A model generated the notes under the pieces. It saw nothing but the letters and a program-made list of their open reading frames with translations. It was not told where the DNA came from and did not search any database. From the NCBI GenBank assembly GCA_963978545.1, contig OZ021729.1:14411501-14475500 (forward strand): a DNA stretch of 64,000 nucleotides, read 5' to 3'. Source of the DNA: Linyphia triangularis. Taxonomy: Eukaryota; Arthropoda; Arachnida; Araneae; Linyphiidae. The translations under genes were made by a program, and so were the position numbers. Below, piece by piece: positions 18,033 to 29,883 of the stretch (the stretch's first letter is position 1; each line of letters begins with the position of its first letter).

Positions 18033-18932
18033 TTATTTTATCATGTGTGTTAGGAGGTGTTTTCGAAGAGCCTGCTTACGAACAAATGCTTTATTGCACC
18101 TTTCACACACATGCATGTTTTCTCCAGTATGGATGCGGCAGTGTTTCTTCAGATTACTCTTATTAGAAAACTGTTTGTTACACACTTCACACACGTATGG
18201 CTTCTCACCTGTATGCACAAGTAGATGAGAATTGAGATGTCCTTTATGAGCAAACTGTTTATTGCACACATCACACACGTGTGGCTTCTCACCCGTGTGG
18301 ATAAGGAGGTGTGAAATGAGGTATTCCCTATGAGTAAACAGTTTATTACACATTTCACATTTGTGAGACTTTTGTCCTTTATGTATAAGTAGATGTTTTT
18401 TAAAATTACACTTGTCAGCAAATTGTTTGTTACACGCTTCACACGTGTGTGGTTTTTCACCAGTGTGTGTTAGGAGGTGTCTCTTGAGACTCTTTAAATA
18501 ATTAAATTGTTTGTTGCACACATTACATACATACGATTTTGGCTTTTCTCCAGTGTGGATAAAGAGGTGAGTCTTGAGTTGTCCCTTATAAGTAAACTTT
18601 TTATTGCACACTTCACACATGTGGGGCTTTTCTCCTGTGTGTACTAGAGAGTGTTTTTGAAGATTATGTTTATGGGCAAATGTCTTATTGCACTCTTTAC
18701 ATACATGCTGCTTTTTTCCAGTGTGTATAAGAAGGTGAGCATCGAGATGACATTTTTGAGTAAATTGTTTGTTGCACACTTCACAGATGTGTGGCTTTTT
18801 TGTGGTGTGTGATAAGTGGTTTTTATGAAGAGCTTCCTTTCGAGAAAATGTCTCATCGCATTCTTTGGACTCTTTTAGATTTTCTTCAGCGTGGACAAGA
18901 TTTTTGTTTGGACCATTTTTTTGCGAATACAT
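18033..18932 (-). CDS. Multi-C2H2 zinc-finger protein (TGEKP-linker type)
   Basis: A 299-residue single-exon frame with one degenerate N-terminal finger (residues about 22-42) and nine intact C2H2 fingers of the form C-x2-C-x12-H-x3-H. They are joined by TGEKPH-like linkers (variants TTKKPH, TGKKQH, KGQKSH, TGENMH). It has the layout of a nuclear sequence-specific DNA-binding protein. No SCAN, KRAB or BTB domain is present. Finger backbones are highly alike (CEVCNKQF), indicating recent tandem growth, while the DNA-contact positions differ. The start ATG at 18932 is the first in frame. It lies head-to-head with transposon copy B, about 270 bp from the CACGTG repeats. It is either a host gene beside the insertion or cargo of the element. 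Confidence 0.8.
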   Translation of the reverse strand: MYSQKNGPNKNLVHAEENLKESKECDETFSRKEALHKNHLSHTTKKPHICEVCNKQFTQKCHLDAHLLIHTGKKQHVCKECNKTFAHKHNLQKHSLVHTGEKPHMCEVCNKKFTYKGQLKTHLFIHTGEKPKSYVCNVCNKQFNYLKSLKRHLLTHTGEKPHTCEACNKQFADKCNFKKHLLIHKGQKSHKCEMCNKLFTHREYLISHLLIHTGEKPHVCDVCNKQFAHKGHLNSHLLVHTGEKPYVCEVCNKQFSNKSNLKKHCRIHTGENMHVCERCNKAFVRKQALRKHLLTHMIK

Positions 18933-19202
18933 TTCGCAGAAATTTCTTGTTGAATATTGAGACTTTTTATAATGTTTTCAAACTAACCTTACATTAATTC
19001 CTGTTCGCATAAATAAGAACTTTCGTTGCCCACTGCGGTTATGGATATACGTTTTAATCTTATCCTTCCTTTCAATTGAATGCTTTTCTATTTTCTATAT
19101 GCACCTGATCACAATAGAAGGAGAAAAAAAAAGAAAAAAAAACCTATTTTTTCATCACGGTACAGCTGGAATACTGCACATTCTAGTAATATTTTACGCA
19201 TG

Positions 19203-19259
19203 GTCACGTGACATGTTACCCTGTTTGGAGACGACTGCGCGCGCATCTAGTCACGTGAC
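19203..19259. promoter_or_regulatory. Paired GTCACGTGAC palindromes (E-box) upstream of copy B
   Basis: Two perfect 10-bp palindromes at 19203-19212 and 19250-19259 are separated by a GC-rich block with CGCGCGC. Both survive in copy A (about 2096 and 5285), so they are conserved parts of the element. CACGTG is the classic target of bHLH-zip factors. A CRE-like TGACGTAA lies near 19315. Binding is inference. Confidence 0.5.
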
Positions 19260-19633
19260 ACGTTAACTTCCTGCTCCTGGAATCTGAAAGTGCTGGATAC
19301 GATGGTAACATAAATGACGTAATTAGTGGCTTTTAGACACTTTAGTGGCGCTCGCCTGAGGCCTGACTATTGTCTGCACTGCTAGTCATCTTTTTGATCA
19401 CGTCTGTAGAAAAACGTGGTTTTTTAAAGAGACGTACTTCTTTGTGCTGCCTTTTTATTTGAGTTAATTCTTTTATTAGCTTTTATATTTGTGTGATTTG
19501 CCATTACTTGTTTTAGTATTTTGTGCTTTAATTACTTATTTTGTGGTTTATTGTTAATCCTATTTGCATTCATATATCTTTTTTATCAAATATTTACGCT
19601 TTTTTTTCTTTTGTTTACCTTTGCTATTAGATT

Positions 19634-21283
19634 GTGCTTAGCTATATTTTCTTCAGTTTTTCACATTTCCTTAAGATGAGAATTCTCGTAATCGGCGATT
19701 CCATTGTTAAGAATCTGGGGTTATTCTTAACGGAGGAGTTGCTTGATCATGATGTTTTTCTCAAACCGTATCCAGGTTACAAGATTGAAGGGTTGAAGGA
19801 TATGATTTCCTCTTTGGACAACCAATACGACTGGGTTTTTGTGCATGTTGGTACAAACAATACCTATCATGATCACACTGAGACCATGTTAGAAAAGTAT
19901 GGTTGTCTCTTTGAGGAAATACTGTTTTTTAACCCTGATGTCAGGGTTATCGTTTCAGGTATCCTACCCCGTAAGGAGAACAGTTTTCCAGAAGAGGCTG
20001 GTAAAAGGGATAGGTTTGTGAACCAACTGGCTTCCTTAAATAAAAAAATCGAATACATTAATTCTAGGCTGGAAAAGCTATGCCTAGGCCGTGAGGCATT
20101 CTTTTATTACAAGTTGCACGAGCCTATCTTGGGAAGAGACGGCCTTCATCTCGGACCACGTGGTCATCCACAGATGGGGAAGGATGTCGCAAAGACACTA
20201 AAGACATTGATAGGTAAGGAACTTAAGGTATGTAATATCCCTCGGTTTCTTTCTCCCGAGATTTTCCCTTCTTTATCTTTAGGATATTCTCAACAGTCCT
20301 GTACTACTTCCTTTCCAAAATCTTTTTCTTCATTATTCTCACCAAATGCTCTTGTCCCTTTTATATCTTTCTCACCTGCTCTCTCTTCTAAGCATTCTGC
20401 TTCCGCTACTTCTTCTAAGCCTTTCACTTCCACTGCTTCTTCTAAGCTTTTCACTTCCGTTACTTCTTCGAAGCCTTTCACTTCCACTACTTATTCGAAG
20501 CCTTTCACTTCCGCTACTTATTCTAAGCCTTTCACTTCTACTTCTTCTAAGTCTTATGCTTCTGCTCTTGCTCCTAATTCTAAGCCTTTTGCTTACCAGA
20601 TTTCTTCTAAATCTTATGCTTCTGCTCCTTCTTCTAAGTCGTATGCTTCTGCACTTACTTTCAAGCCTTCTACTTCCGCTTCTCCTAAGACTTATGCTTC
20701 TGCTCTTACTTCTAATTGTTTGACTTGCCCTACTTTTTCCAAATCGTATGCTTCTGCACTTACTTCCAAGTCTTTTGCTTCCACTCTTCCTAAGCCTTTT
20801 GCTTCTGCTCCTCTTCCTAAGCCTTTTGCTTCTGCTCCTCTTCCTAAGCCTTTTGCTTCTGTTCCTCTTTCTAAGCCTTTTGCTTCTGTTCCTCCTTCTA
20901 GGCCTTTTGCTTCTGTTCCTCTTTCTAAGCCTTTTCCTCATGCTCCTTCTACTAAGCTTTTTCCTCAAGCTCCTACTAAGCCTTTTCCTCACATTCCTTC
21001 TACTAAGCCTTTTCTTCATGCTCCTACTAAGCTTTCCTATTCTAAATCTTCGGTTTGCTCTTACAAACTACCTTCTTTTTCCTCTAAACCTTTTTCTTTC
21101 ACTCCCTCTTCAGAGTCTGCCTTTCCTACTCCCTCTTCCAATATGGTTTATACTGTAAAGGTGTGCAATCGATTTTCAGTGTTGGAAAATACTCCCTCTC
21201 TCTATCATAAATCCCTCTCTTCTCCTTCAACTAAACCCCTTTTTAAATCATTCCCAATCAAATTTTACAAGCGTGTTTTGTGA
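19634..21283 (+). CDS. SGNH/GDSL-type hydrolase domain with Ser/Pro/Lys repeat tail (transposon-encoded)
   Basis: Residues 15-195 form an SGNH hydrolase-like domain: block I GDS with the nucleophile at S23, block III as HVGTNN (71-76), and block V DGLH with D169 and H172. Such esterase-like domains are known in some non-LTR retrotransposon ORF1 proteins; their presence next to a MULE transposase is unusual. M15 (19676), after TTCCTTAAG, is an equally good start. From about residue 205 to 520 the protein is a low-complexity series of KPFTSxxSS, KSYASA and KPFASAPLP units. A strong splice donor AAG|GTATGT sits at 20228, exactly on a codon boundary after K198. The tail could therefore be intronic in a spliced form and translated only when the intron is kept. 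Confidence 0.75.
   Translation: MLSYIFFSFSHFLKMRILVIGDSIVKNLGLFLTEELLDHDVFLKPYPGYKIEGLKDMISSLDNQYDWVFVHVGTNNTYHDHTETMLEKYGCLFEEILFFNPDVRVIVSGILPRKENSFPEEAGKRDRFVNQLASLNKKIEYINSRLEKLCLGREAFFYYKLHEPILGRDGLHLGPRGHPQMGKDVAKTLKTLIGKELKVCNIPRFLSPEIFPSLSLGYSQQSCTTSFPKSFSSLFSPNALVPFISFSPALSSKHSASATSSKPFTSTASSKLFTSVTSSKPFTSTTYSKPFTSATYSKPFTSTSSKSYASALAPNSKPFAYQISSKSYASAPSSKSYASALTFKPSTSASPKTYASALTSNCLTCPTFSKSYASALTSKSFASTLPKPFASAPLPKPFASAPLPKPFASVPLSKPFASVPPSRPFASVPLSKPFPHAPSTKLFPQAPTKPFPHIPSTKPFLHAPTKLSYSKSSVCSYKLPSFSSKPFSFTPSSESAFPTPSSNMVYTVKVCNRFSVLENTPSLYHKSLSSPSTKPLFKSFPIKFYKRVL
20228..21179 (+). other. Predicted intron joining the hydrolase to the zinc-finger/transposase frame
   Basis: The donor is AAG|GTATGT at 20228; the acceptor is GATTTTCAG|TGTTGG ending at 21179. 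The interior is extremely pyrimidine-rich on the sense strand, with repeated TTCTAAG. Both junctions are in phase 0, and the frame from 21180 is open into the zinc-finger ORF. That ORF has an in-frame stop at 21156-21158, just before the acceptor, and no good ATG of its own before its fingers. This is a prediction from sequence; no transcript was seen. Confidence 0.6.
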
Positions 21284-22688
21284 AAAAATAGATTATAGTC
21301 TCTCAACTGTGGAACTATGTGCTTTCAAGCCAACTGTAGAGGGAAAATGTAATTCCAATCAGCACCATGTAACTGGAGGTGGAGATGTTAAATGTACTTA
21401 TCCTAGACAGTGCTCACAATGCAAAGTATATTTTCCCACTCGAAACACTTTTCATAAACATGTTAAAAGAGCTCAGTGTAAGTCAAACCAAGTAGAGGTA
21501 TGTACAGTTTCGTATCCTAGAGAGTGCCCCAATTGCTTGAAATCGTATCGTTCTAAAGCATCGTTCTTCAATCATAAAAAAAAGTGTAACAATCAACAAA
21601 TGCCTGCAGGCTCCCTGGTTTCTTCAATTAATGTGAAAAATAGTTTAGCACTTTATGACACTGACTCAATGGAATCCCCTCCTGACAATATCTCATCAAC
21701 TTTTTACCCAGGTTTAAATTCTGAAGCGGATATGCAATGTCCATCTGGTGCAGAAATAGATTGTGAAATTTTCCAAAATAGTTTTAAGTCAACTTATCCC
21801 AAGAAATGTGAAACCTGCAGTATTGTTTTTCAATATCGACAGGGATTTTATAGTCATAAAAGTAGGTGTTCTATTACTAAGTATAAGTTTAACAAATGCC
21901 TATATCCCGAGTGTGAAGAATCATTTAGGCAGCTTGGTCGCTTAAATAAACACTTATTGGAGAAACACAATTTAGGGAGCATGAAAGTTTTAACCTTTAA
22001 TTCAATTGATACCTTTTTAGTCTGGTTGGATTCTGAAGGTACTTCAACCTACAGCTCATTTAAAAAGTTAACTGGAGTTAAAGTTAGTGGATCAAAGAAA
22101 CTTCACTATTATTCCTGTCAGTTCTATGTGTCCCCTTCTTTGCAAGCTAAGCCTATCAAAGGTCATTTTCGTAAAAATCAAAAAGGTACTATTCCAATAG
22201 ATATCAATTGTCCAGTTAGAATGTATGTATGTGAAGAGGTAGATACAGTAACTGTATATTATTTTTCAGAACATAATCACCACATTGGTTTTGAAAATTG
22301 TATATACCAACCCCTAAAACTACATTTCAGGGATTCTATAAAACTACTGTCACAGTTAAAAGTTCCCATTCCAGAAATTCAGCGCTTATTAAGAGAAGAT
22401 GTAGCTCATCGTGGTAATCGTTTCACACATCCCACAAAGGAAACTCTTGCTAACCGCAAATCAATTCAAGCGTATGCAAGACGAATGCACACTTCTCTGT
22501 ACCCAGAAAATGATGCCGTTTCTGTTTGTACGATTGTGCAAAATCTAAGTTACGAAACATATAACTCTGTTTTAATATTTAAACCTTTCAACTCGGAAAC
22601 ATTATTTGGTCCCGACAATCTTGATACGTTACCAAATTCAAAGGGTATTTTTGCATTGGGTATTCAAACAGAAAGAAATGCTGGTTAA
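21180..22688 (+). CDS. Transposase N-terminal part: CCHC/C2H2 fingers and FAR1/WRKY-GCM1-like region
   Basis: Open from 21159 to a stop at 22688. Three CCHC-type fingers (CSQC...HVKRAQC, CPNC...HKKKC, CETC...HKSRC) are followed by one C2H2 finger (CLYPEC...HLLEKH). A Cys/His region comes next (YYSCQFY...CPVRMYVC...EHNHHIG), resembling the FAR1/WRKY-GCM1 zinc cluster common at the N-terminus of MULE transposases. It likely binds element ends. No ATG precedes the fingers within the frame, which supports expression by splicing from the hydrolase exon. The terminal residues before the stop are displaced by a single-base indel; the transposase continues in the next frame from about 22680. Confidence 0.75.
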   Translation, partial: CWKILPLSIINPSLLLQLNPFLNHSQSNFTSVFCEKIDYSLSTVELCAFKPTVEGKCNSNQHHVTGGGDVKCTYPRQCSQCKVYFPTRNTFHKHVKRAQCKSNQVEVCTVSYPRECPNCLKSYRSKASFFNHKKKCNNQQMPAGSLVSSINVKNSLALYDTDSMESPPDNISSTFYPGLNSEADMQCPSGAEIDCEIFQNSFKSTYPKKCETCSIVFQYRQGFYSHKSRCSITKYKFNKCLYPECEESFRQLGRLNKHLLEKHNLGSMKVLTFNSIDTFLVWLDSEGTSTYSSFKKLTGVKVSGSKKLHYYSCQFYVSPSLQAKPIKGHFRKNQKGTIPIDINCPVRMYVCEEVDTVTVYYFSEHNHHIGFENCIYQPLKLHFRDSIKLLSQLKVPIPEIQRLLREDVAHRGNRFTHPTKETLANRKSIQAYARRMHTSLYPENDAVSVCTIVQNLSYETYNSVLIFKPFNSETLFGPDNLDTLPNSKGIFALGIQTERNAG

Positions 22689-24951
22689 AAATTCTCATAA
22701 AACACTTTGCATTGATGCCACTTTCAATACTAACCAGTATGATTTTTATCTTATTACTATTGTTATTCCTGATGAATTTGATCAAGGTTACCCAGTTGCT
22801 CATTTCATTACAAATCGTTTAGATTATTGTTTGATAGTTTGCATGTTTACCAGCTTAAAACTTAAAGTACCTGAATTAGAAGTGCATACTCTAATGACTG
22901 ATGATGATACATTCACATATGAAGCATTTGAGACAGTCTTTGGTCCTGACGTTAGGCATTTTTTATGTCAGTGGCATGTTCTACGAGCTTGGTTACGACA
23001 AATTAATTTAAAAGGGCTGTCTCAAGAACTTAAAGAAGAGATGAAAATGAAGTTAAAAGAATTATTGTATGAAAAGAGTATTAACACATTTCATATCCTT
23101 CTTAAACAGTTTCACAATTTTACTTCTAAATTCCAGGCATTTCACAATTATTTTTTTAATACATATCATCACAGGCATGAATTATGGGCAGGATGTTTCC
23201 GCACCTCACCTTTTACCTCAATTACAACAAACAACTATTGTGAGTCATTTCACAATCAACTAAAATCTGTCTATTTAGAACGCAAGTACAATAGACGATT
23301 AGATGTCTTGTTACTAAAGCTGCTGCAGATGGAAGAAGACCGTTATCTAAGCCATGCTCAAAAGAAGTTAAATGATTTCCCTATTGCTTCCAAACAAAAT
23401 AAGATTTCAAAAACAACACATAATTGTGGGCGAAAGATACCAGATGAACATGTTGCACATCAAAATGATTCCTGGTTAGTTAGTTCTCAGTCAACCAAAA
23501 ACAAACACTACATAATTAAACAAATTTGTACAGAGTGCCCAATAATTGATCACTGTTATTTTAAATGTAATGCAGTGACTTGCAAATCTTTATGCAGCCA
23601 TTTGTATACTTGTACCTGTCCAGCTGATAGCAATTTATGCAAACATATCCACAAAGTTCACTCCGTGTACATCCGCAAACATCCAGAAAGCACCACAAAT
23701 ACTTTATTGCCTATGGAACCATCAGAAATAGTTAAACAAAATAATATACCATTGTATTCTAATAAACATGTTGGTGTATCATCTGCTAGGACAGTTACTA
23801 ATGAACAAATATCAGGTGAGTTAGACAAACTGTTTGGTGAATTAGCAGGGTATATGAGGATTCCACTTGTACGAGATGTTATGCTAAAACCTACAATCAC
23901 ATCATTAAGATCGTTAGTTTCTAGTTGCAGAGGTGTTGCAAATTTAAAAGGTATTGTAAATGATATTCCACATTCTAAAGTTGCGCCTAATCAAAGGCTT
24001 GCTCGTCAAGTAGATTTCTTCAAAAATAATCCAAAGAAGAAAATGTCAAGAAAAACAAGAAAACAATTGCATTCTAAAAGGCACAATTCAAAAAGATGTT
24101 TAGATTTAGAAAACATTGATCAGGCTGCTAAGTGTATTGTGCCTCCTATTAAGCGATTTAAATGTTCAGCTATTGATGAAATTCAATCACCCACCAAACA
24201 TACAGAAGAAGAAATTGCTAGATCTTTTTCTATAGAGTTAAAAGAATGTTATTGTCCAAAGATTGTAGGTATTTATAACCCGAGTTATGTTTCTCTTAAA
24301 TCTCTTGATCATTGTATTGATACTAAAAATTTGAATTTATTAAAATTAAAAGATCCTCAGTTTGTTTTAGGATGGTTGTATGATGAAATTATTGATTCAT
24401 TTATATATATGTTATCTAACAACAAAGTTACCTTTTCATCCATGAGCTCAAGTATTTCTTTAATACTTTGCTCAGGTGAAAGTTCATTTGATTTTGATCT
24501 TCCTACAACAGTTATATTTTTTCCCGTTTGCATCAATGGTCACTGGATTTTATTAGTTGTGAATAAAATAAATAAAGTAATTGAAGTGTATGATCCAAAG
24601 CCAGGTACTAATTACCAAAACTATTTGTATAATTTTAAGACTTCTTTGGAAAGAGGCGGCATAAGTAATTTGCATGAATGGAAAATTACTTTCCCTCCTC
24701 ATACACTGCAACAGGATTCCATCAGTTGTGGTGTATTTGTTTGTTATTATGTGCATCAAATTATACATGAGCATAATGTTTCAACAAACTTTAGTCCCAG
24801 TCAATTTAGGCCATATATGTATCATGCTTTGTTGAGTGCAGCTCCTTTAAAGTTTAGTAATGATGAAAATTACATTTGTTCTGATGACAATCAACATGAA
24901 ATTTCTCAACCCAATGGGAATTTAGAAAAAAGCTCAAGTTTTTCAATTTAA
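22606..24951 (+). CDS. MULE transposase core, SWIM finger and Ulp1-like C48 protease domain
   Basis: Meaningful sequence starts near residue 24. MULE catalytic motifs: CIDATF (D37), LMTDDDT (D99/D100), CQWH (C121, H124), and NNYCESF (E213). A SWIM finger follows, CTC-x6-CKH (C336, C338, C345, H347). After a basic linker comes a Ulp1/SENP-like cysteine protease fold with GHWILL (H646), VYDP (D663), Q703 and SCG (C708). The family acts by DDE cut-and-paste transposition; the protease would process SUMO-like conjugates, but its true substrate is unknown. The apparent ATG at 22606 is probably not the start; the frame continues from 21180-22688 across a single-base shift. The stop at 24951 follows a six-A run, after which the next frame continues into a second protease. 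Confidence 0.85.
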   Translation: MVPTILIRYQIQRVFLHWVFKQKEMLVKNSHKTLCIDATFNTNQYDFYLITIVIPDEFDQGYPVAHFITNRLDYCLIVCMFTSLKLKVPELEVHTLMTDDDTFTYEAFETVFGPDVRHFLCQWHVLRAWLRQINLKGLSQELKEEMKMKLKELLYEKSINTFHILLKQFHNFTSKFQAFHNYFFNTYHHRHELWAGCFRTSPFTSITTNNYCESFHNQLKSVYLERKYNRRLDVLLLKLLQMEEDRYLSHAQKKLNDFPIASKQNKISKTTHNCGRKIPDEHVAHQNDSWLVSSQSTKNKHYIIKQICTECPIIDHCYFKCNAVTCKSLCSHLYTCTCPADSNLCKHIHKVHSVYIRKHPESTTNTLLPMEPSEIVKQNNIPLYSNKHVGVSSARTVTNEQISGELDKLFGELAGYMRIPLVRDVMLKPTITSLRSLVSSCRGVANLKGIVNDIPHSKVAPNQRLARQVDFFKNNPKKKMSRKTRKQLHSKRHNSKRCLDLENIDQAAKCIVPPIKRFKCSAIDEIQSPTKHTEEEIARSFSIELKECYCPKIVGIYNPSYVSLKSLDHCIDTKNLNLLKLKDPQFVLGWLYDEIIDSFIYMLSNNKVTFSSMSSSISLILCSGESSFDFDLPTTVIFFPVCINGHWILLVVNKINKVIEVYDPKPGTNYQNYLYNFKTSLERGGISNLHEWKITFPPHTLQQDSISCGVFVCYYVHQIIHEHNVSTNFSPSQFRPYMYHALLSAAPLKFSNDENYICSDDNQHEISQPNGNLEKSSSFSI

Positions 24952-25587
24952 CAAAATTGATGAAGATAATGTTTCGGATCATGTAGTCACCATAAATGGC
25001 ATAAAAATTACTCAGTATATGCTTAAGTGTTTAGATCCTTCTCCTACTTCTAATGAAGAGAGAATTTTAAAGTTAGCTTCCCCTTGCTTTAAAAAGGGTT
25101 GGTTGTATAATTCAGTAATTGATGCATTTATTTATAATATAATTAAGCACAATTCAAGCATTAGTTCTATGAATTCTGTACTTTCGGTAGAAATGCTAAA
25201 CAAATTTGCCTATAAAAATCTTAGTCGTTTGGGAAATGATCTTTAAAAAAAAGAGCTTTTATTAATTCCTATTAATATAAATTCTCATTGGGTGTTGCTA
25301 CTTGCTTACATTAAAAAGTGTGAATTTCAATTTTTTGATCCATTGCGTCTAGAGATTTCACGAGTATTATAAGTAAGTGTGTTTTGTTTCTAAATGATTT
25401 GTTAGGTATTTCATCTAAGTGGTCAATTAATTGTCCTCAGCATGTTCAACAAACAGATAATTTTAATTGTGGTCTGTTTATTTGTTATTATGCTGAACAA
25501 ATAATTAAAAACGCCTCATTAACCAAAGAATTTAACTCTTATCGTTTTAGGGAATATGTTCATAAAAGCATAATGGGTTTGTCATGA
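24952..25587 (+). pseudogene. Second Ulp1-like protease domain, frame-broken
   Basis: Reading onward in a shifted frame from about 24930 gives a second domain of the same design as the first. It has a GWLYNSVIDAFIYN block (25095-25140), SHWVLL with the catalytic His (about 25285), FFDPL with the Asp (about 25337), and QQTDNFNCG with the Gln and Cys (about 25447-25470). Stops or shifts at 24951, 25246 and about 25370 break it into pieces. Copy A retains the stretch between the Asp and Gln blocks more continuously. It was therefore once part of a single long polyprotein carrying two tandem proteases. Confidence 0.75.
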
Positions 25588-25630
25588 TGAAAATGTTTCA
25601 TGTATGTGTTAGTAATTTATACCTTTTTTA

Positions 25631-25636
25631 AATAAA
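25631..25636 (+). terminator. Candidate polyadenylation signal of copy B
   Basis: AATAAA lies 44 bp after the final stop of the second protease block. It is a plausible mRNA 3' end signal, although the conserved non-coding segment continues beyond it. Confidence 0.35.
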
Positions 25637-25676
25637 TACTGTTAAAGTTGTAAGTAAATTAAGTAGTAATGGTTAT

Positions 25677-25773
25677 ATTGCATAAGTCTTGCAGGGAAGA
25701 GGCTGGCACCCGAGTTAAAAACTAAACCCCTGTTCAAATACACTTATGCAATCTGAGAACCCGCAGGTGTCAG
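25677..25773 (+). ncRNA. Conserved 3' segment with interlocking stems (candidate RNA pseudoknot)
   Basis: ATTGCATAAGT (25677-25687) is the exact reverse complement of ACTTATGCAAT (25742-25752). CTGGCACC (25703-25710) pairs with GGTGTCAG (25766-25773) with one G-U. The second stem starts inside the loop of the first and ends outside it, a pseudoknot layout. Copy A keeps both pairings with changes. It could be a transposon terminal structure or an RNA element. Confidence 0.45.
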
Positions 25774-25859
25774 GCAGTAATGCCGTCAAAAGCCTATTAA
25801 AAATATTAATATACATAAAAGTTTTTTAGTGTGACTGTTAAATAGATATTTAATTTTTT

Positions 25860-27330
25860 TAATAATTTTAACAGCAATATTGTGCTTGTTCCACATTGTG
25901 CCATAGTTCTAGGATTGAAAATTAATTTAATTTAATTATTTTTTTAATTTCATTCCATGTTAAAAGCTCTCCTGTAATATTTTTTTTGTATCAGAATTGG
26001 TTCAGTGTTCTCATTTCTCTTAATAGAATCACCACTTGAATTAATTGATAACATCACATAAAAATTGGAAATAAAGTGAGGCTACTTTATTGTGTCAAAT
26101 TACTTATGTTTGTTTTATTTATTCAACAGTGTAAAAGAAACTAGATGACCATGACTAACTAGATATCTGGATCACCATTTAGAAAAAACCTCAATTCTTA
26201 ATAATGTTACTCAAGCATTCCAAGAGTTTAAATTTTGTGTATATTGGTTTTCTTTTTAAATAATAAAATTCTTAAATGAAATATGCTTTGTAATTATATT
26301 CTTGGTGTATGTATTAGCACAAATATTATAAATTTCATTATTATTTTTTGTTATATGCAAATGATATAGCTCAATATTATCAATTGTTGCCTGTTATTTA
26401 GTAGGTAACAAATATATTCAGACCACCTATTACTAGTTTATTAAAACTGTCAAATTCAGCATAGTAAATAAACTATTAAATAATTATAATATATTTTTGA
26501 AAATAATTAAGCTAAATTTTTCACTCTATGAAATGGCATAAAAATAATTAAAATATATATATTAAATGATGAATGAAATATTAAATGATGCCTTACAAAT
26601 AGAAAGTTAGGTGTAAATAAATTTTAAAAAAAATAAAAAATTTACTTTTATTATTTTGTTACAAACTTATTGCATTGATTAAGGTTAACAAAAATGCATA
26701 ATCTCCTTAAATTGTTGGGAAAATTTCCAAAAGAAAGCAATGTATTTATTGATATATGCATGTCTTTTCCTGTTGGATTTTAATTTGTGGGTACTAGTTT
26801 TTATGAACTTAATTTAGGTGCGTTTATACAAGAAATTCCTGCATTGGATAAAAAATCAGTTTTAACTCTACCTTTATAACATTCATTCCAATAAGAAAAC
26901 TTTTATTTGGATGTACTTTCTAATCATCAATAGTTGAAATACTTACTAATTTAATGGGATATAAGACACATTTTTAAAAGAATTCTATTAAATTTGCTGG
27001 GTGTGTAATGAAATATTGCAAATCGAAAAACAACTTGAATGATGATGGCAAACAATGAATTTTGTATTTGATTAAACACTATCACGCTTACTTTTAGAAT
27101 ATTCAAATGATAAGGCATACATTTTTTGAAAAGTTCTCACCATTTTTTGACAATTTATAAAATGATGGAAACTATTTATAAAAATTTCGTGCATTTATAA
27201 AAAGTTAGCAATTATTGAATAGTAAGTGTTCTATGCAGGTAGAGTTAAAATTATGATTTCACATTGAACTCAAAAACATCAATATTTTTGGAAAAGAGAT
27301 TTTTTTATAATATTTCGTTACCCAATGCAG
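25860..27330. other. AT-rich stretch, no gene recognised
   Basis: No coding or RNA feature is evident. It is presumably intronic for the plus-strand gene whose last exon starts at 27331. Confidence 0.35.
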
Positions 27331-27470
27331 GGTGGTGGGGGCAATTTGCTCAGGATCTACAGAAATCTAAAGGAAGGTCCTCTCTGCCTCTTAAGGAGCT
27401 AACCTGGGGTAAAATTCTAGAATTAACAAAAGAGAAAGAACAGGCGATTGATCCCGCAGATTTTCAATGA
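27331..27470 (+). CDS. Probable terminal coding exon of an unrecognised gene
   Basis: A clear acceptor (TTACCCAATGCAG) precedes a compact, non-repetitive frame of about 46 residues ending in TGA. It starts with WWGQFAQDLQ and contains a basic SKGRSSLPLKELTW segment and an EKEQAID tail. Base composition is less AT-rich than the flanks. The exon enters in phase 2 (two leading bases GG). The style is that of a small soluble or mitochondrial protein C-terminus, but I do not recognise the family. Upstream exons were not found. Confidence 0.45.
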
Positions 27471-28560
27471 ATTCAGCTTTGACTATTTTACATTTTTAAA
27501 AGCATATGAAAGCGATCGCATTTACTAGTATTTTAGTTTTAAATTTGCAGTTCATATAAGCATATATTTTCCTTTTATACACACCGACTAAACTAATGTA
27601 CGTTATTTTGCTAGCATAATACTCGAGCTTCGTTTCAAAACTGTTCCTAGTTTTAGGGTTATGGAAAGTAGACATAAGAATATTCCATATTTGAAACGTT
27701 TTTATCCCTTTATTAACTCTTATAGATCGGGGTAGCTTAGTTTTCCAATGTACAGCTACTGAAATGAGTGCAAATATTTTCATCTCATTGCTGATTATTA
27801 GGTTTGAAGAACGGTTTCGGTTTCCCTTAATTGAGATTAGTTCAAATTGTAATTGTTTAGTGTTGCTTATGGCTTTAAGAATATGTGTACCAGTTTTCAG
27901 AGTCAATAGGTGTTTTCTGCATTTGGAACCCTTTAAAGTAAGTTAATCGAGATTCGAATGGCTGTGTAAGATTATCTATATTAGCCATGGTTATCATTTG
28001 TATTAAATTGTAAAGTTTTGGCTGTTTGAGGATTTGGGACCAGCACTGACACTGCGTACTGCTCTAAAAAAAGGAACTATGACAGTGATTGTAGCAGATA
28101 GATTACACGATAAAAGAACGGCAACTTGGTTTGAATTTCCAATATCTTATTATTAAAGAAGCAAATATGGACAGATCTACATAGAAGACCTCCTAAAAGG
28201 CACACCAGAAGTTATGTTTCATTAGAGCGATATGTCGTCGCGATGCTTCAGTACAGTACAGTCTAATTTATATTAAAGTAAAAATAATATACATATTTAT
28301 AGACCTCCTACTCCTTTTTAAAAGTATTTTAAAGAAAAATTCACGTTTTTAGTTAATTGTCGTTTCATAAATATATATCATAAAATTTATTTTAAAGCAC
28401 ACAGGGACAGTTTCTAAACGAAAAATAAAATAACGCAGTAAATTCATTAACATGAAATCCCTGAAATTAAAATTGAATAAAAAAATAAATCTCTTAAGAT
28501 ATTGAGTTATTTTCTCAATGTGGGGTCCACCACCACTCCACAATTCCTAATCACGTCCAG
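27471..28560. other. 3' flank and intergenic region
   Basis: It probably includes the 3' untranslated region of the gene ending at 27470. Open frames exist on both strands at 27496-27946 but show no domain. A GTAAGT donor-like site occurs at 27938 on the plus strand. Confidence 0.35.
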
Positions 28561-28720
28561 AAAAAACTAGATGCGCGCGCCGGTGTCTCCTCCGAGGGTC
28601 ACTTCATACGTCATATCCGTAAAAGATTCCTCGAGTGGAGGCCGTTCGTACAGCTGTGTTTGTATTTACTTTTTGTTCATAGCTTGTGCCACAGGCTAGG
28701 TTATATGTGAATATGGACCT
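28561..28720 (+). promoter_or_regulatory. Putative promoter/first exon region of ALKBH1
   Basis: A local rise in GC (GCGCGCGCCGG, CTCGAGTGGAGGCCG) and CRE-like TACGTCA within ATACGTCATATCCG stand out from the AT-rich surroundings about 300-400 bp before the coding start. Spacing fits a promoter and untranslated first exon spliced to 28848. Confidence 0.4.
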
Positions 28721-28847: not shown

Positions 28848-28983
28848 ACAGATTAGCAGTGAGTTGCGATGCCACCAAAAGCTAAGATAATTTCCCCATG
28901 CCATTTGTTCTTTTGCAACAATTGGCAACAGATTGTATCAAACATGTAAATAAACATTAGAAGTGCACGCATTTTGTCCCATT
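28848..28983 (+). other. ALKBH1 5' leader with a short upstream reading frame
   Basis: After an acceptor-like TTTTTATTAG at about 28838-28847 the leader holds an upstream ATG at 28869. It opens a 26-codon frame (starting MPPKAKIISP) that ends TAA at 28947-28949, before the main ATG. This could damp translation or encode a small peptide. Confidence 0.4.
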
Positions 28984-29883
28984 ATGTGTGAAAACGATCT
29001 ATTTAAAGAAGATTTTAAGTATTACAAAAAGAAAATTCCACCTCCAAATCTTGACAAAGTGATAGATTTTAATCGATATTTTGATTTCGATACAGTTCAC
29101 AACGTTACAGAAACTTATATGTGGGGAAACTTAGACGGAAATCAATGTCCAGAATGCGAACAGCTTCATCTTAAATGCCATCACACTTGGGAACTGTATT
29201 CAGTAAAAGGCCTAGAGGGATTTATTTACATCAAAAATCCATTCTTTGTCACTGGTCAACAAACTTGGTTAAGAAAATGCTTAGAGCAATATCCCCGCAA
29301 GCCTTCTATAACCAATCTAGACGCGCATTTCCTAAATGTTGACGATATTTGGTCTCTTCGTAATGGTTCAGATACTGAAAGATCGTATTTAAAGAAACTT
29401 TGTTGGGCGACGCTTGGTTACCATCACAACTGGGACACAAAACGGTACGATCCTCATCACAAATCTGAATTTCCATCTTGTTTAAAGGGGCTATCTAAAC
29501 ACATTGCCAATTGCTTAGGATTTGTGAATTACAAACCAGAAGCAGCCATTGTCAATTACTATAACTTGAAATCGAGCTTGAGTATACATAATGACCATTC
29601 TGAAGACAGCAAAGCGCCTATAATATCCATTAGTTTTGGACAGACAGGACTGTTTTTGATCGGGACCGAAAATAAGTTTGAGAAGCCACATGCTGTTTTT
29701 TTGCGGAGTGGGGATGTAATTGTAATGTCTAGAGCTTGTAGATTATCTTATCATGCTGTGCCATGTATTTTACCCGAAGACGTCAGTAACAGGTTTTGTG
29801 ATTCTCGGAATGATGATTGGACAGAATTTTATGAGTATATAAATAAGTCCCGTATCAATATTAGTGTGCGGCAAGTTTACTAA
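28984..29883 (+). CDS. ALKBH1: Alkylated DNA repair protein AlkB homolog 1
   Basis: An Fe(II)/2-oxoglutarate dioxygenase of the AlkB family. ALKBH1 in animals demethylates m1A in tRNA, oxidises m5C in mitochondrial tRNA-Met and has reported DNA activities; it acts in mitochondria and nucleus. The 299-residue frame is uninterrupted. The iron triad is visible: HND (His-x-Asp, about residues 198-200) in SLSIHNDHSED, and the distal His in LSYHAVP. The C-terminal RINISVRQVY gives the Arg residues that bind 2-oxoglutarate. The FPSCLKGLSKHIA and NYYNLKSSLSIH blocks match the ALKBH1 subfamily. The ATG at 28984 is the first in frame. It is single-exon here, so either the host gene lacks coding introns or this is an intact retrocopy. 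AATAAA follows at 29884 and about 30104. Confidence 0.9.
   Translation: MCENDLFKEDFKYYKKKIPPPNLDKVIDFNRYFDFDTVHNVTETYMWGNLDGNQCPECEQLHLKCHHTWELYSVKGLEGFIYIKNPFFVTGQQTWLRKCLEQYPRKPSITNLDAHFLNVDDIWSLRNGSDTERSYLKKLCWATLGYHHNWDTKRYDPHHKSEFPSCLKGLSKHIANCLGFVNYKPEAAIVNYYNLKSSLSIHNDHSEDSKAPIISISFGQTGLFLIGTENKFEKPHAVFLRSGDVIVMSRACRLSYHAVPCILPEDVSNRFCDSRNDDWTEFYEYINKSRINISVRQVY

What the first reader, a model, noticed from the sequence alone, without database searches (positions are those of the whole stretch)
19634..25587. A MULE-like transposon encoding SGNH hydrolase, zinc fingers, MULE transposase, SWIM finger and two Ulp1-like proteases
All modules are visible in one orientation with recognisable catalytic residues (GDS/DGLH; D-D-CxWH-E; CxC-x6-CxH; H-D-Q-C). 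Ulp1-like proteases are known in some plant MULEs, and SGNH esterases in some LINE ORF1 proteins. I do not know of a described animal DNA transposon combining both with a zinc-finger MULE transposase.
Basis: partly seen in the sequence, partly recalled or inferred. Interest (0 to 1): 0.85.

Follow-up and report, generated by a model that had tools for sequence, protein, structure and literature searches.

The report
Spider jumping gene with built-in esterase
This is a cut-and-paste jumping gene of a spider whose one very long protein joins a lipid-type esterase, DNA-binding fingers, the cutting enzyme and two SUMO-type proteases; a kept glycine pair between its two halves hints that the protein may cut itself apart.

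Summary
The finding is real. It is the coding part of one Mutator-like (MULE) transposon, window 19169-28647 (9,479 bp), with imperfect ~73-bp inverted ends and a perfect 9-bp target duplication. The host is a spider (21 Spidroin_N matches). The window copy is frame-broken; in six other copies (families A-D) the coding part is ONE open frame, 2,008-2,177 aa from the first Met: SGNH esterase, Ser/Pro-rich linker, C2H2 fingers, DDE transposase, SWIM, Ulp1, Ulp1. SGNH is in place in 40 of 45 copies that reach the transposase N-end, is under purifying selection (dN/dS 0.20-0.29), and its nearest solved relative is a LINE ORF1 protein. Araneus has the front half (truncated models); the mealybug Planococcus citri has the whole order with one Ulp1. 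Ulp1 in animal MULEs is on record; SGNH in a MULE I did not find in print in seven searches (Repbase not covered). New here: a Thr/Asn-Gly-Gly just before the first finger, in linkers nearly free of glycine. Ulp1-clan proteases cut after Gly-Gly, so I propose a self-processing polyprotein that frees the esterase half from the transposase half. That step is inferred, not shown.

The parts
19160..19168 (.). left target-site duplication GTACAGCTG
   Evidence: identical to 28648-28656; lies just outside the stretch shared with L021 and L022
19169..28647 (+). whole MULE-like element, 9,479 bp
   Evidence: shared with L021 (99.5%) and L022 (97.9%) from end to end
19169..19251 (+). left terminal inverted repeat
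   Evidence: 73 bp at 72.6% identity to the right end; alignment
19676..20233 (+). SGNH (GDSL-type) esterase domain, from the likely start Met
   Evidence: Pfam 4.5e-7; fold like PAF acetylhydrolase; 4c1b LINE ORF1 protein 5.1e-16 by profile
20234..21371 (+). Ser/Pro-rich linker with 27-base repeats (frame break inside this copy)
   Evidence: repeats; dN/dS 0.47-0.68 in other copies
21372..21380 (+). Thr-Gly-Gly, proposed self-cleavage site (cut after the second Gly)
   Evidence: position; kept in families A-D, Araneus and one Bemisia protein; cleavage not shown
21390..21968 (+). C2H2-type zinc fingers
   Evidence: weak Pfam matches; Cys/His pattern
22705..22983 (+). MULE domain of the DDE transposase; D at 22714 and 22900, CxWH, E at 23242
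   Evidence: Pfam MULE 1.1e-11; residues read from the sequence
23611..23646 (+). SWIM-type finger CTCPADSNLCKH
   Evidence: read from the sequence; motif
24240..24860 (+). Ulp1-A protease (His codon 24541, Cys codon 24727)
   Evidence: Peptidase_C48 9.9e-11; model of the L023 copy matches SENP5, E 1.5e-9
24950..25587 (+). Ulp1-B protease, frame-broken in this copy
   Evidence: 32-36% identical to Ulp1-A in L023, L024, L026, L028; second C48 stretch in L023 and L024
25588..28565 (+). right part without a clear gene
   Evidence: longest frame 148 aa, on the - strand
28566..28647 (+). right terminal inverted repeat
28648..28656 (.). right target-site duplication GTACAGCTG

Best explanation
A copy of a young group of cut-and-paste MULE families of a spider, coded as one polyprotein of about 2,000-2,200 residues. 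Shown by sequence: ends, target duplications, layout, kept catalytic residues, purifying selection. Inferred: (1) the C2H2 fingers bind the ends and the DDE core cuts and joins; (2) one or both Ulp1-type proteases cut the polyprotein after the kept Thr/Asn-Gly-Gly in front of the first finger, setting the SGNH-linker half free from the finger-DDE-SWIM-Ulp1 half; (3) the freed half, a LINE-ORF1-type esterase, acts on lipids or membranes, as proposed for LINE ORF1 esterases; (4) the proteases may also take SUMO off the transposase or off host silencing proteins. I hold the identity of the element at about 0.97 and the self-cleavage step at about 0.4; the figure below is for the statement as a whole.
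For: Ends and duplications: 4 of 8 copies with both ends read have perfect 9-bp duplications, one 10 bp, one 8 bp. One frame in six copies. SGNH in place in 40 of 45, dN/dS 0.20-0.29. Nearest solved sequence 4c1b, LINE ORF1. Same order, with one Ulp1, in Planococcus citri. The [T/N]GG lies 8-12 residues before the first finger in six lineages; shuffled linkers put a GG in the last 20 residues in 27 to 434 of 20,000. Ulp1-A has the SENP fold; clan relatives process viral polyproteins, the ASFV enzyme after Gly-Gly (passages of PMC12445089 and PMC7178854).
Against: No cleavage was shown. The lineages are related, so the six GG cases are not independent. L009 and L010 of 20 loci do not show the site. 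Bemisia P0006 has the GG but no SGNH in its model; Planococcus has a Gly-rich linker and no clear site. The 7 SGNH-less proteins without GG have only 29-53 residues before the first finger, so their lack of it is weak support. Families A-C have one more GG, inside Ulp1-A. Cellular Ulp1 needs a folded SUMO (recalled), and I saw none in the linker. The membrane role rests on analogy alone.
Confidence: 0.42

Rival explanations
1. Same transposon, no self-cleavage: the polyprotein works whole, the Ulp1 domains act only in trans (taking SUMO or ubiquitin off host factors or off the transposase), and the GG is a hinge.
For: Ulp1 domains stand at the end of transposases without SGNH in thrips and other animals and in plant and animal MULEs (passages); best fold matches are SENPs bound to SUMO.
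Against: Does not explain why a GG with Thr or Asn before it is kept at the one joint between the halves in linkers that hold 2-7 glycines otherwise.
Confidence: 0.45
2. SGNH is a passenger: a captured gene piece that rides along and decays.
For: MULEs capture host gene pieces (PMC6446971 text); 5 of 36 pieces show no SGNH.
Against: dN/dS 0.20-0.29 and kept GDS/GTNN/DGLHL across families A-D, in frame with the transposase in six copies; again fused in an insect.
Confidence: 0.05
3. Neighbouring or nested elements, or an assembly artefact, that only look like one unit.
For: The window copy is split over several frames.
Against: The same unit with the same ends at other places of the genome, with their own duplications, and as one open frame.
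Confidence: 0.01
4. A virus-derived element whose protease matures virion proteins.
For: Clan CE proteases mature several DNA viruses (PMC12445089 passages).
Against: No capsid, packaging or polymerase family in the Pfam scans of window frames and three copies; no relative confirmed in the viral contig scan; nearest folds are SENPs.
Confidence: 0.01

Closest known systems
MULE/MuDR elements with Ulp1 in hydra and lancelet (named in PMC2836005, passage seen)
   Same: MULE transposase with a Ulp1-type protease in an animal
   Different: No SGNH mentioned in the passage; here SGNH at the front, two Ulp1 copies and a kept GG. Their sequences were not compared.
Plant KIU/VANDAL-type MULEs with Ulp1 (PMC13317346, passages seen)
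   Same: MULE carrying a Ulp1 domain
   Different: Described there as non-TIR elements with Ulp1 in a separate gene; here TIRs and one polyprotein
Spectre and Ghost clades of arthropod MULEs (PMC6446971, two of six parts of the text and passages seen)
   Same: Arthropod hosts including spiders; Spectre has C2H2 fingers and TIRs of about 74-76 bp
   Different: Spectre is given an 8-bp duplication and two ORFs; no SGNH or Ulp1 is mentioned. Kinship not tested.
LINE ORF1 esterases (ZfL2-1; PMC3905857, passages seen; PDB 4c1b matched here)
   Same: SGNH domain, nearest solved sequence
   Different: There part of ORF1p of a retrotransposon; here the front of a DDE transposase polyprotein
GDSL esterase ORFs of bdelloid LTR elements and Terminons (PMC5408684, PMC6431247, passages seen) and texim next to fish Helitrons (PMC4021074, passages seen)
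   Same: SGNH/GDSL gene carried by a mobile element
   Different: Separate ORF or neighbouring gene, not fused to a DDE transposase

Membership tests
MULE (Mutator-like) superfamily | MULE-type DDE transposase domain | tested here: met
   Pfam MULE 1.1e-11 in the window, over cut-off; D-D-E with CxWH
MULE (Mutator-like) superfamily | 8-11-bp target duplications (range from PMC6446971) | tested here: met
   6 of 8 copies have a perfect 8-10-bp duplication; L023 7 of 9, L027 none clear
MULE (Mutator-like) superfamily | terminal inverted repeats (absent in non-TIR MULEs) | tested here: met
   72.6% over 73 bp in family A, 85.9% over 78 bp in C; family B not measured
Spectre clade | place in the transposase tree | not tested
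   no Spectre sequences at hand
Phantom group | FLYWCH finger (recalled) | tested here: not met
   no FLYWCH match in Pfam up to E 1 in the window frames
SGNH hydrolases | Ser, Gly, Asn, His blocks and flavodoxin-like fold | tested here: met
   GDS, Gly34, GTNN, DGLH invariant in 6 of 6 rows of A2 except Asn-Asn/His after GTN; fold match TM 0.72-0.76
LINE non-LTR retrotransposon | reverse transcriptase | tested here: not met
   no RT family in the Pfam scans
Peptidase C48 (Ulp1/SENP) | His-Asp-Gln-Cys and Ulp1 fold | tested here: met
   His, Gln, Cys invariant in 9 of 9 domains, Asp in 8 of 9; SENP5 best fold match 1.5e-9 for Ulp1-A
Peptidase C48 (Ulp1/SENP) | cleavage after Gly-Gly or removal of SUMO | not testable with these tools
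   needs an assay

The most novel reading that the evidence does not exclude
A DNA transposon that makes a self-processing polyprotein: SUMO-protease-type domains cut it at a kept Gly-Gly and release a LINE-type lipid esterase from the transposase. Cut-and-paste transposons would thus, like some retroelements, carry their own membrane enzyme, perhaps helping spread between cells or species, in spiders and sap-sucking insects alike.
Probability: 0.4. Interest if true: 0.86.

Novelty: new variant of a known kind. Interest (0 to 1): 0.68.

Why it matters
Why mobile elements carry lipid esterases is an open question, so far posed mainly for retroelements. The same module fused to a cut-and-paste transposase, kept under selection in several families of one genome and met again in an insect, suggests that its use is not tied to RNA or reverse transcription. 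The role of Ulp1 in transposons is also unknown; the kept Gly-Gly gives a concrete, cheap test. Nearly identical copies with one open frame point to recent activity.

Tried and rejected
Chance neighbourhood or nested elements: rejected by shared ends and single frames. Viral origin: the viral-contig scan gave 98 pattern matches, none confirmed. A gene in the right part: no frame over 148 aa. Rfam: 0 matches. Single capture of SGNH: not rejected (p-AU 0.112), not proven. Not done: a survey of all MULEs (PF10551), of all SGNH copies and of copies by their ends in the own genome, because the machine was busy each time; so I cannot say how many MULE families of this spider lack SGNH, nor the copy number. 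The GG site in 20 further copies could not be fetched. Five of 36 pieces showed no SGNH; whether it is lost or lies outside the piece I did not find out. Papers: seven searches; no listed title or abstract start describes an SGNH module in a MULE; an eighth was for Gly-Gly cleavage. Subscription journals and Repbase are not covered.
Full report
WHAT IS THERE. Stop-to-stop frames at 19631-21283, 21159-22688, 22576-24951 and 24926-25246 hold in order an SGNH esterase, a Ser/Pro-rich repeat linker, C2H2 fingers, a MULE transposase, a SWIM finger and Ulp1 proteases (Pfam; motifs). In this copy the Pfam scores of SGNH (31 bits, cut-off 32.9) and of the fingers are below their cut-offs, so I did not rest on them alone.

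ENDS. The window is G000:C9:14411501-14475500 of a 1.35-Gb genome. Against other copies, identity starts at 19169 and stops at 28647 (L021 99.5%, L022 97.9%), and GTACAGCTG stands on both sides. Of eight copies whose two ends were read, four have perfect 9-bp duplications (window, L021, L024, L025), L022 has 10 bp, L026 8 bp (9 if its first G is flank), L023 matches 7 of 9, and L027 has none that is clear. The ends are inverted repeats: 72.6% over 73 bp in the window, 85.9% over 78 bp in L026. The element is 9.5 kb in the window, about 10.2 kb in L026 and about 12.1 kb in L024 and L025. Copies near 99% identity to the window's transposase frame I call family A, near 84% B, near 63% C, near 42% D.

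ONE POLYPROTEIN. The window copy is frame-broken. L023 (A), L024 and L025 (B), L026 and L027 (C) and L028 (D) each carry one frame of 2,012-2,187 codons stop to stop, 2,008-2,177 aa from the first Met. L022 (A) is open for 1,864 aa and stops early in Ulp1-B. In one search, 15 of 68 matches lie in an open frame of at least 2,012 aa without a stop in the match; six of the 15 are the copies named here.

IS SGNH PART OF IT? Of the 68 matches, 45 start at query residue 50 or less. Nine of these I had as 10-kb stretches (window, L021-L028) and all nine have SGNH: seven by translation, L021 and L025 by near-identity. For the other 36 I fetched 1.5-kb pieces where it should lie: 31 have it on the same strand, 26 of them over at least 182 residues and 5 in part; 5 do not (L047, L053, L061, L067, L069). 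Together 40 of 45. Of the same 45, 32 keep Ulp1-A in the same match; 13 end before it. Pairwise dN/dS for SGNH is 0.20 (A-B), 0.26 (A-C), 0.29 (B-C) and 0.28 (B-D); A-D is saturated. The DDE region gives 0.15-0.18 and the linker 0.47-0.68 among A, B and C. This argues for a working domain rather than a passenger.

WHAT THE MODULES ARE. The SGNH model (6 sequences, mean pLDDT 82) matches PAF acetylhydrolases (best E 1.3e-8, TM 0.72-0.76 among the first seven). By sequence profile the best solved relative is 4c1b, a LINE ORF1 protein (5.1e-16), ahead of the next at 2.2e-7. A profile of whole proteins also hit P0017 (2.1e-11), which has endonuclease, reverse transcriptase and a C-terminal SGNH. 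I infer a LINE-type origin; direction and date are unknown. The Ulp1-A model (9 sequences, pLDDT 88) matches SENP5, SENP1 and yeast Ulp1 (best 1.5e-9). Ulp1-B is 32-36% identical to Ulp1-A in L023, L024, L026 and L028, so the doubling is probably older than the split of the four families. In 9 aligned domains His, Gln and Cys are invariant and Asp is Asn in one.

WHO ELSE HAS IT. The host is a spider: 21 Spidroin_N matches, 0 of 14 control genomes. Three protein searches gave, for Araneus ventricosus, P0002 and P0003 with SGNH, fingers and MULE in truncated models (SGNH below cut-off; P0003 reads GDL for GDS), and for Planococcus citri P0005 (1,698 aa) with SGNH over cut-off, fingers, MULE, SWIM and one Ulp1. 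Proteins with MULE and Ulp1 but no SGNH in the model are P0004, P0009 and P0011-P0015; P0006, P0007, P0008 and P0010 show no Ulp1 in the Pfam column either. In an 18-row transposase tree, with P0001 counted as SGNH-bearing because it is 93% identical to P0002, SGNH needs two changes. Holding the seven SGNH rows together is not rejected (p-AU 0.112), nor is a set with Bemisia P0006 in place of Planococcus (0.338). Three long branches make this tree weak.

THE GLY-GLY SITE. Before the site the linkers of L023, L024, L026, L028 and P0002 hold 2, 4, 2, 7 and 3 glycines in 303-524 residues. Yet each ends with [T/N]GG 8-12 residues before the first finger: VTGGG, VTGGA, VTGGG, ITGGG, KNGGG (KNGGD in P0003); Bemisia P0006 has VNGGG. 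Shuffled linkers put a GG in the last 20 residues in 36, 42, 27, 201, 115 and 434 of 20,000; the lineages are related, so these do not multiply. Family D has no other GG in the protein; A-C have one more, inside Ulp1-A. Other fingers start with the same YPRxC without GG. 18 of 20 loci L001-L020 (families A and B) keep it. Results that do not help: seven SGNH-less proteins have no GG before their first finger, but only 29-53 residues stand there; P0006 has GG without SGNH in its model; Planococcus has several GG in a Gly-rich linker. The clan of Ulp1 includes adenain, vaccinia I7L and the ASFV protease (PMC12445089 passages); the ASFV enzyme cuts polyproteins after the second Gly of Gly-Gly-Xaa (PMC7178854 passages). 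That SUMO precursors are cut after Thr-Gly-Gly, and that cellular Ulp1 binds folded SUMO, is recalled. Hence the proposal that the element's own proteases split the esterase half from the transposase half.

WHAT IS KNOWN. Ulp1 in Mutator elements of hydra, lancelet and plants is on record (PMC2836005 passages; PMC13317346 passages). SGNH/GDSL is on record in LINE ORF1 (PMC3905857 passages), in bdelloid LTR elements and Terminons (PMC5408684 passages; PMC6431247 passages) and with fish Helitrons (PMC4021074 passages). Two MULE surveys had no occurrence of protease, esterase or Ulp in the main text by term search, though the first lists an OTU domain: PMC6446971 (abstract, two of six parts, passages) and PMC13359780 (two of five parts, passages, table), whose complete transposases are 313-1136 aa long. 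Their supplements were not seen. Seven paper searches listed nothing that joins SGNH to a MULE. Repbase could not be searched.

VERDICT. A genuine, probably recently active MULE with a new set of modules: a new variant of a known kind. The identity of the element is close to certain; self-processing is a testable guess at about 0.4; the membrane role of SGNH is by analogy.

Noticed in passing
window 24,820-28,448 against L026 (family C): Family C carries family A's right part: 94-99% identity in 400-column bins from about 24,820 to 28,448, against 58-83% to the left and 74% at the right end; sharp break near 24,800-24,850 at the end of Ulp1-A. Exchange between MULE families.
   Followed up: partly
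window 28954-29883 +: Intron-free 309-aa frame with 2OG-Fe(II) oxygenase domain (2e-38), ALKBH1-like by recall, starting about 300 bp right of the insertion: the element may sit in the 5' flank of a host gene.
   Followed up: no
window 18033-18977 - and 1253-1870 -: C2H2 zinc-finger frames of 314 and 205 aa, the first about 180 bp left of the element.
   Followed up: no
G000 C4:55.508M, C14:11.489M, C15:42.576M, C8:19.276M, C14:8.045M: Five places share the same broken pattern of transposase matches (291-445 and 536-719), as if one defective copy had multiplied.
   Followed up: no
P0015 and P0009: Public gene sets name MULE-Ulp1 proteins after the protease (P0015 Sentrin-specific protease 1, Frankliniella fusca; P0009 Ubiquitin-like-specific protease), although they hold a MULE domain.
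   Followed up: no
L023, L024, L026, P0002 linker ends: A second kept motif, VKVxNxFxVLE-like, stands some 25-80 residues before the Gly-Gly; meaning unknown.
   Followed up: no
P0017: A retroelement protein with SGNH at the C-end behind the reverse transcriptase.
   Followed up: partly
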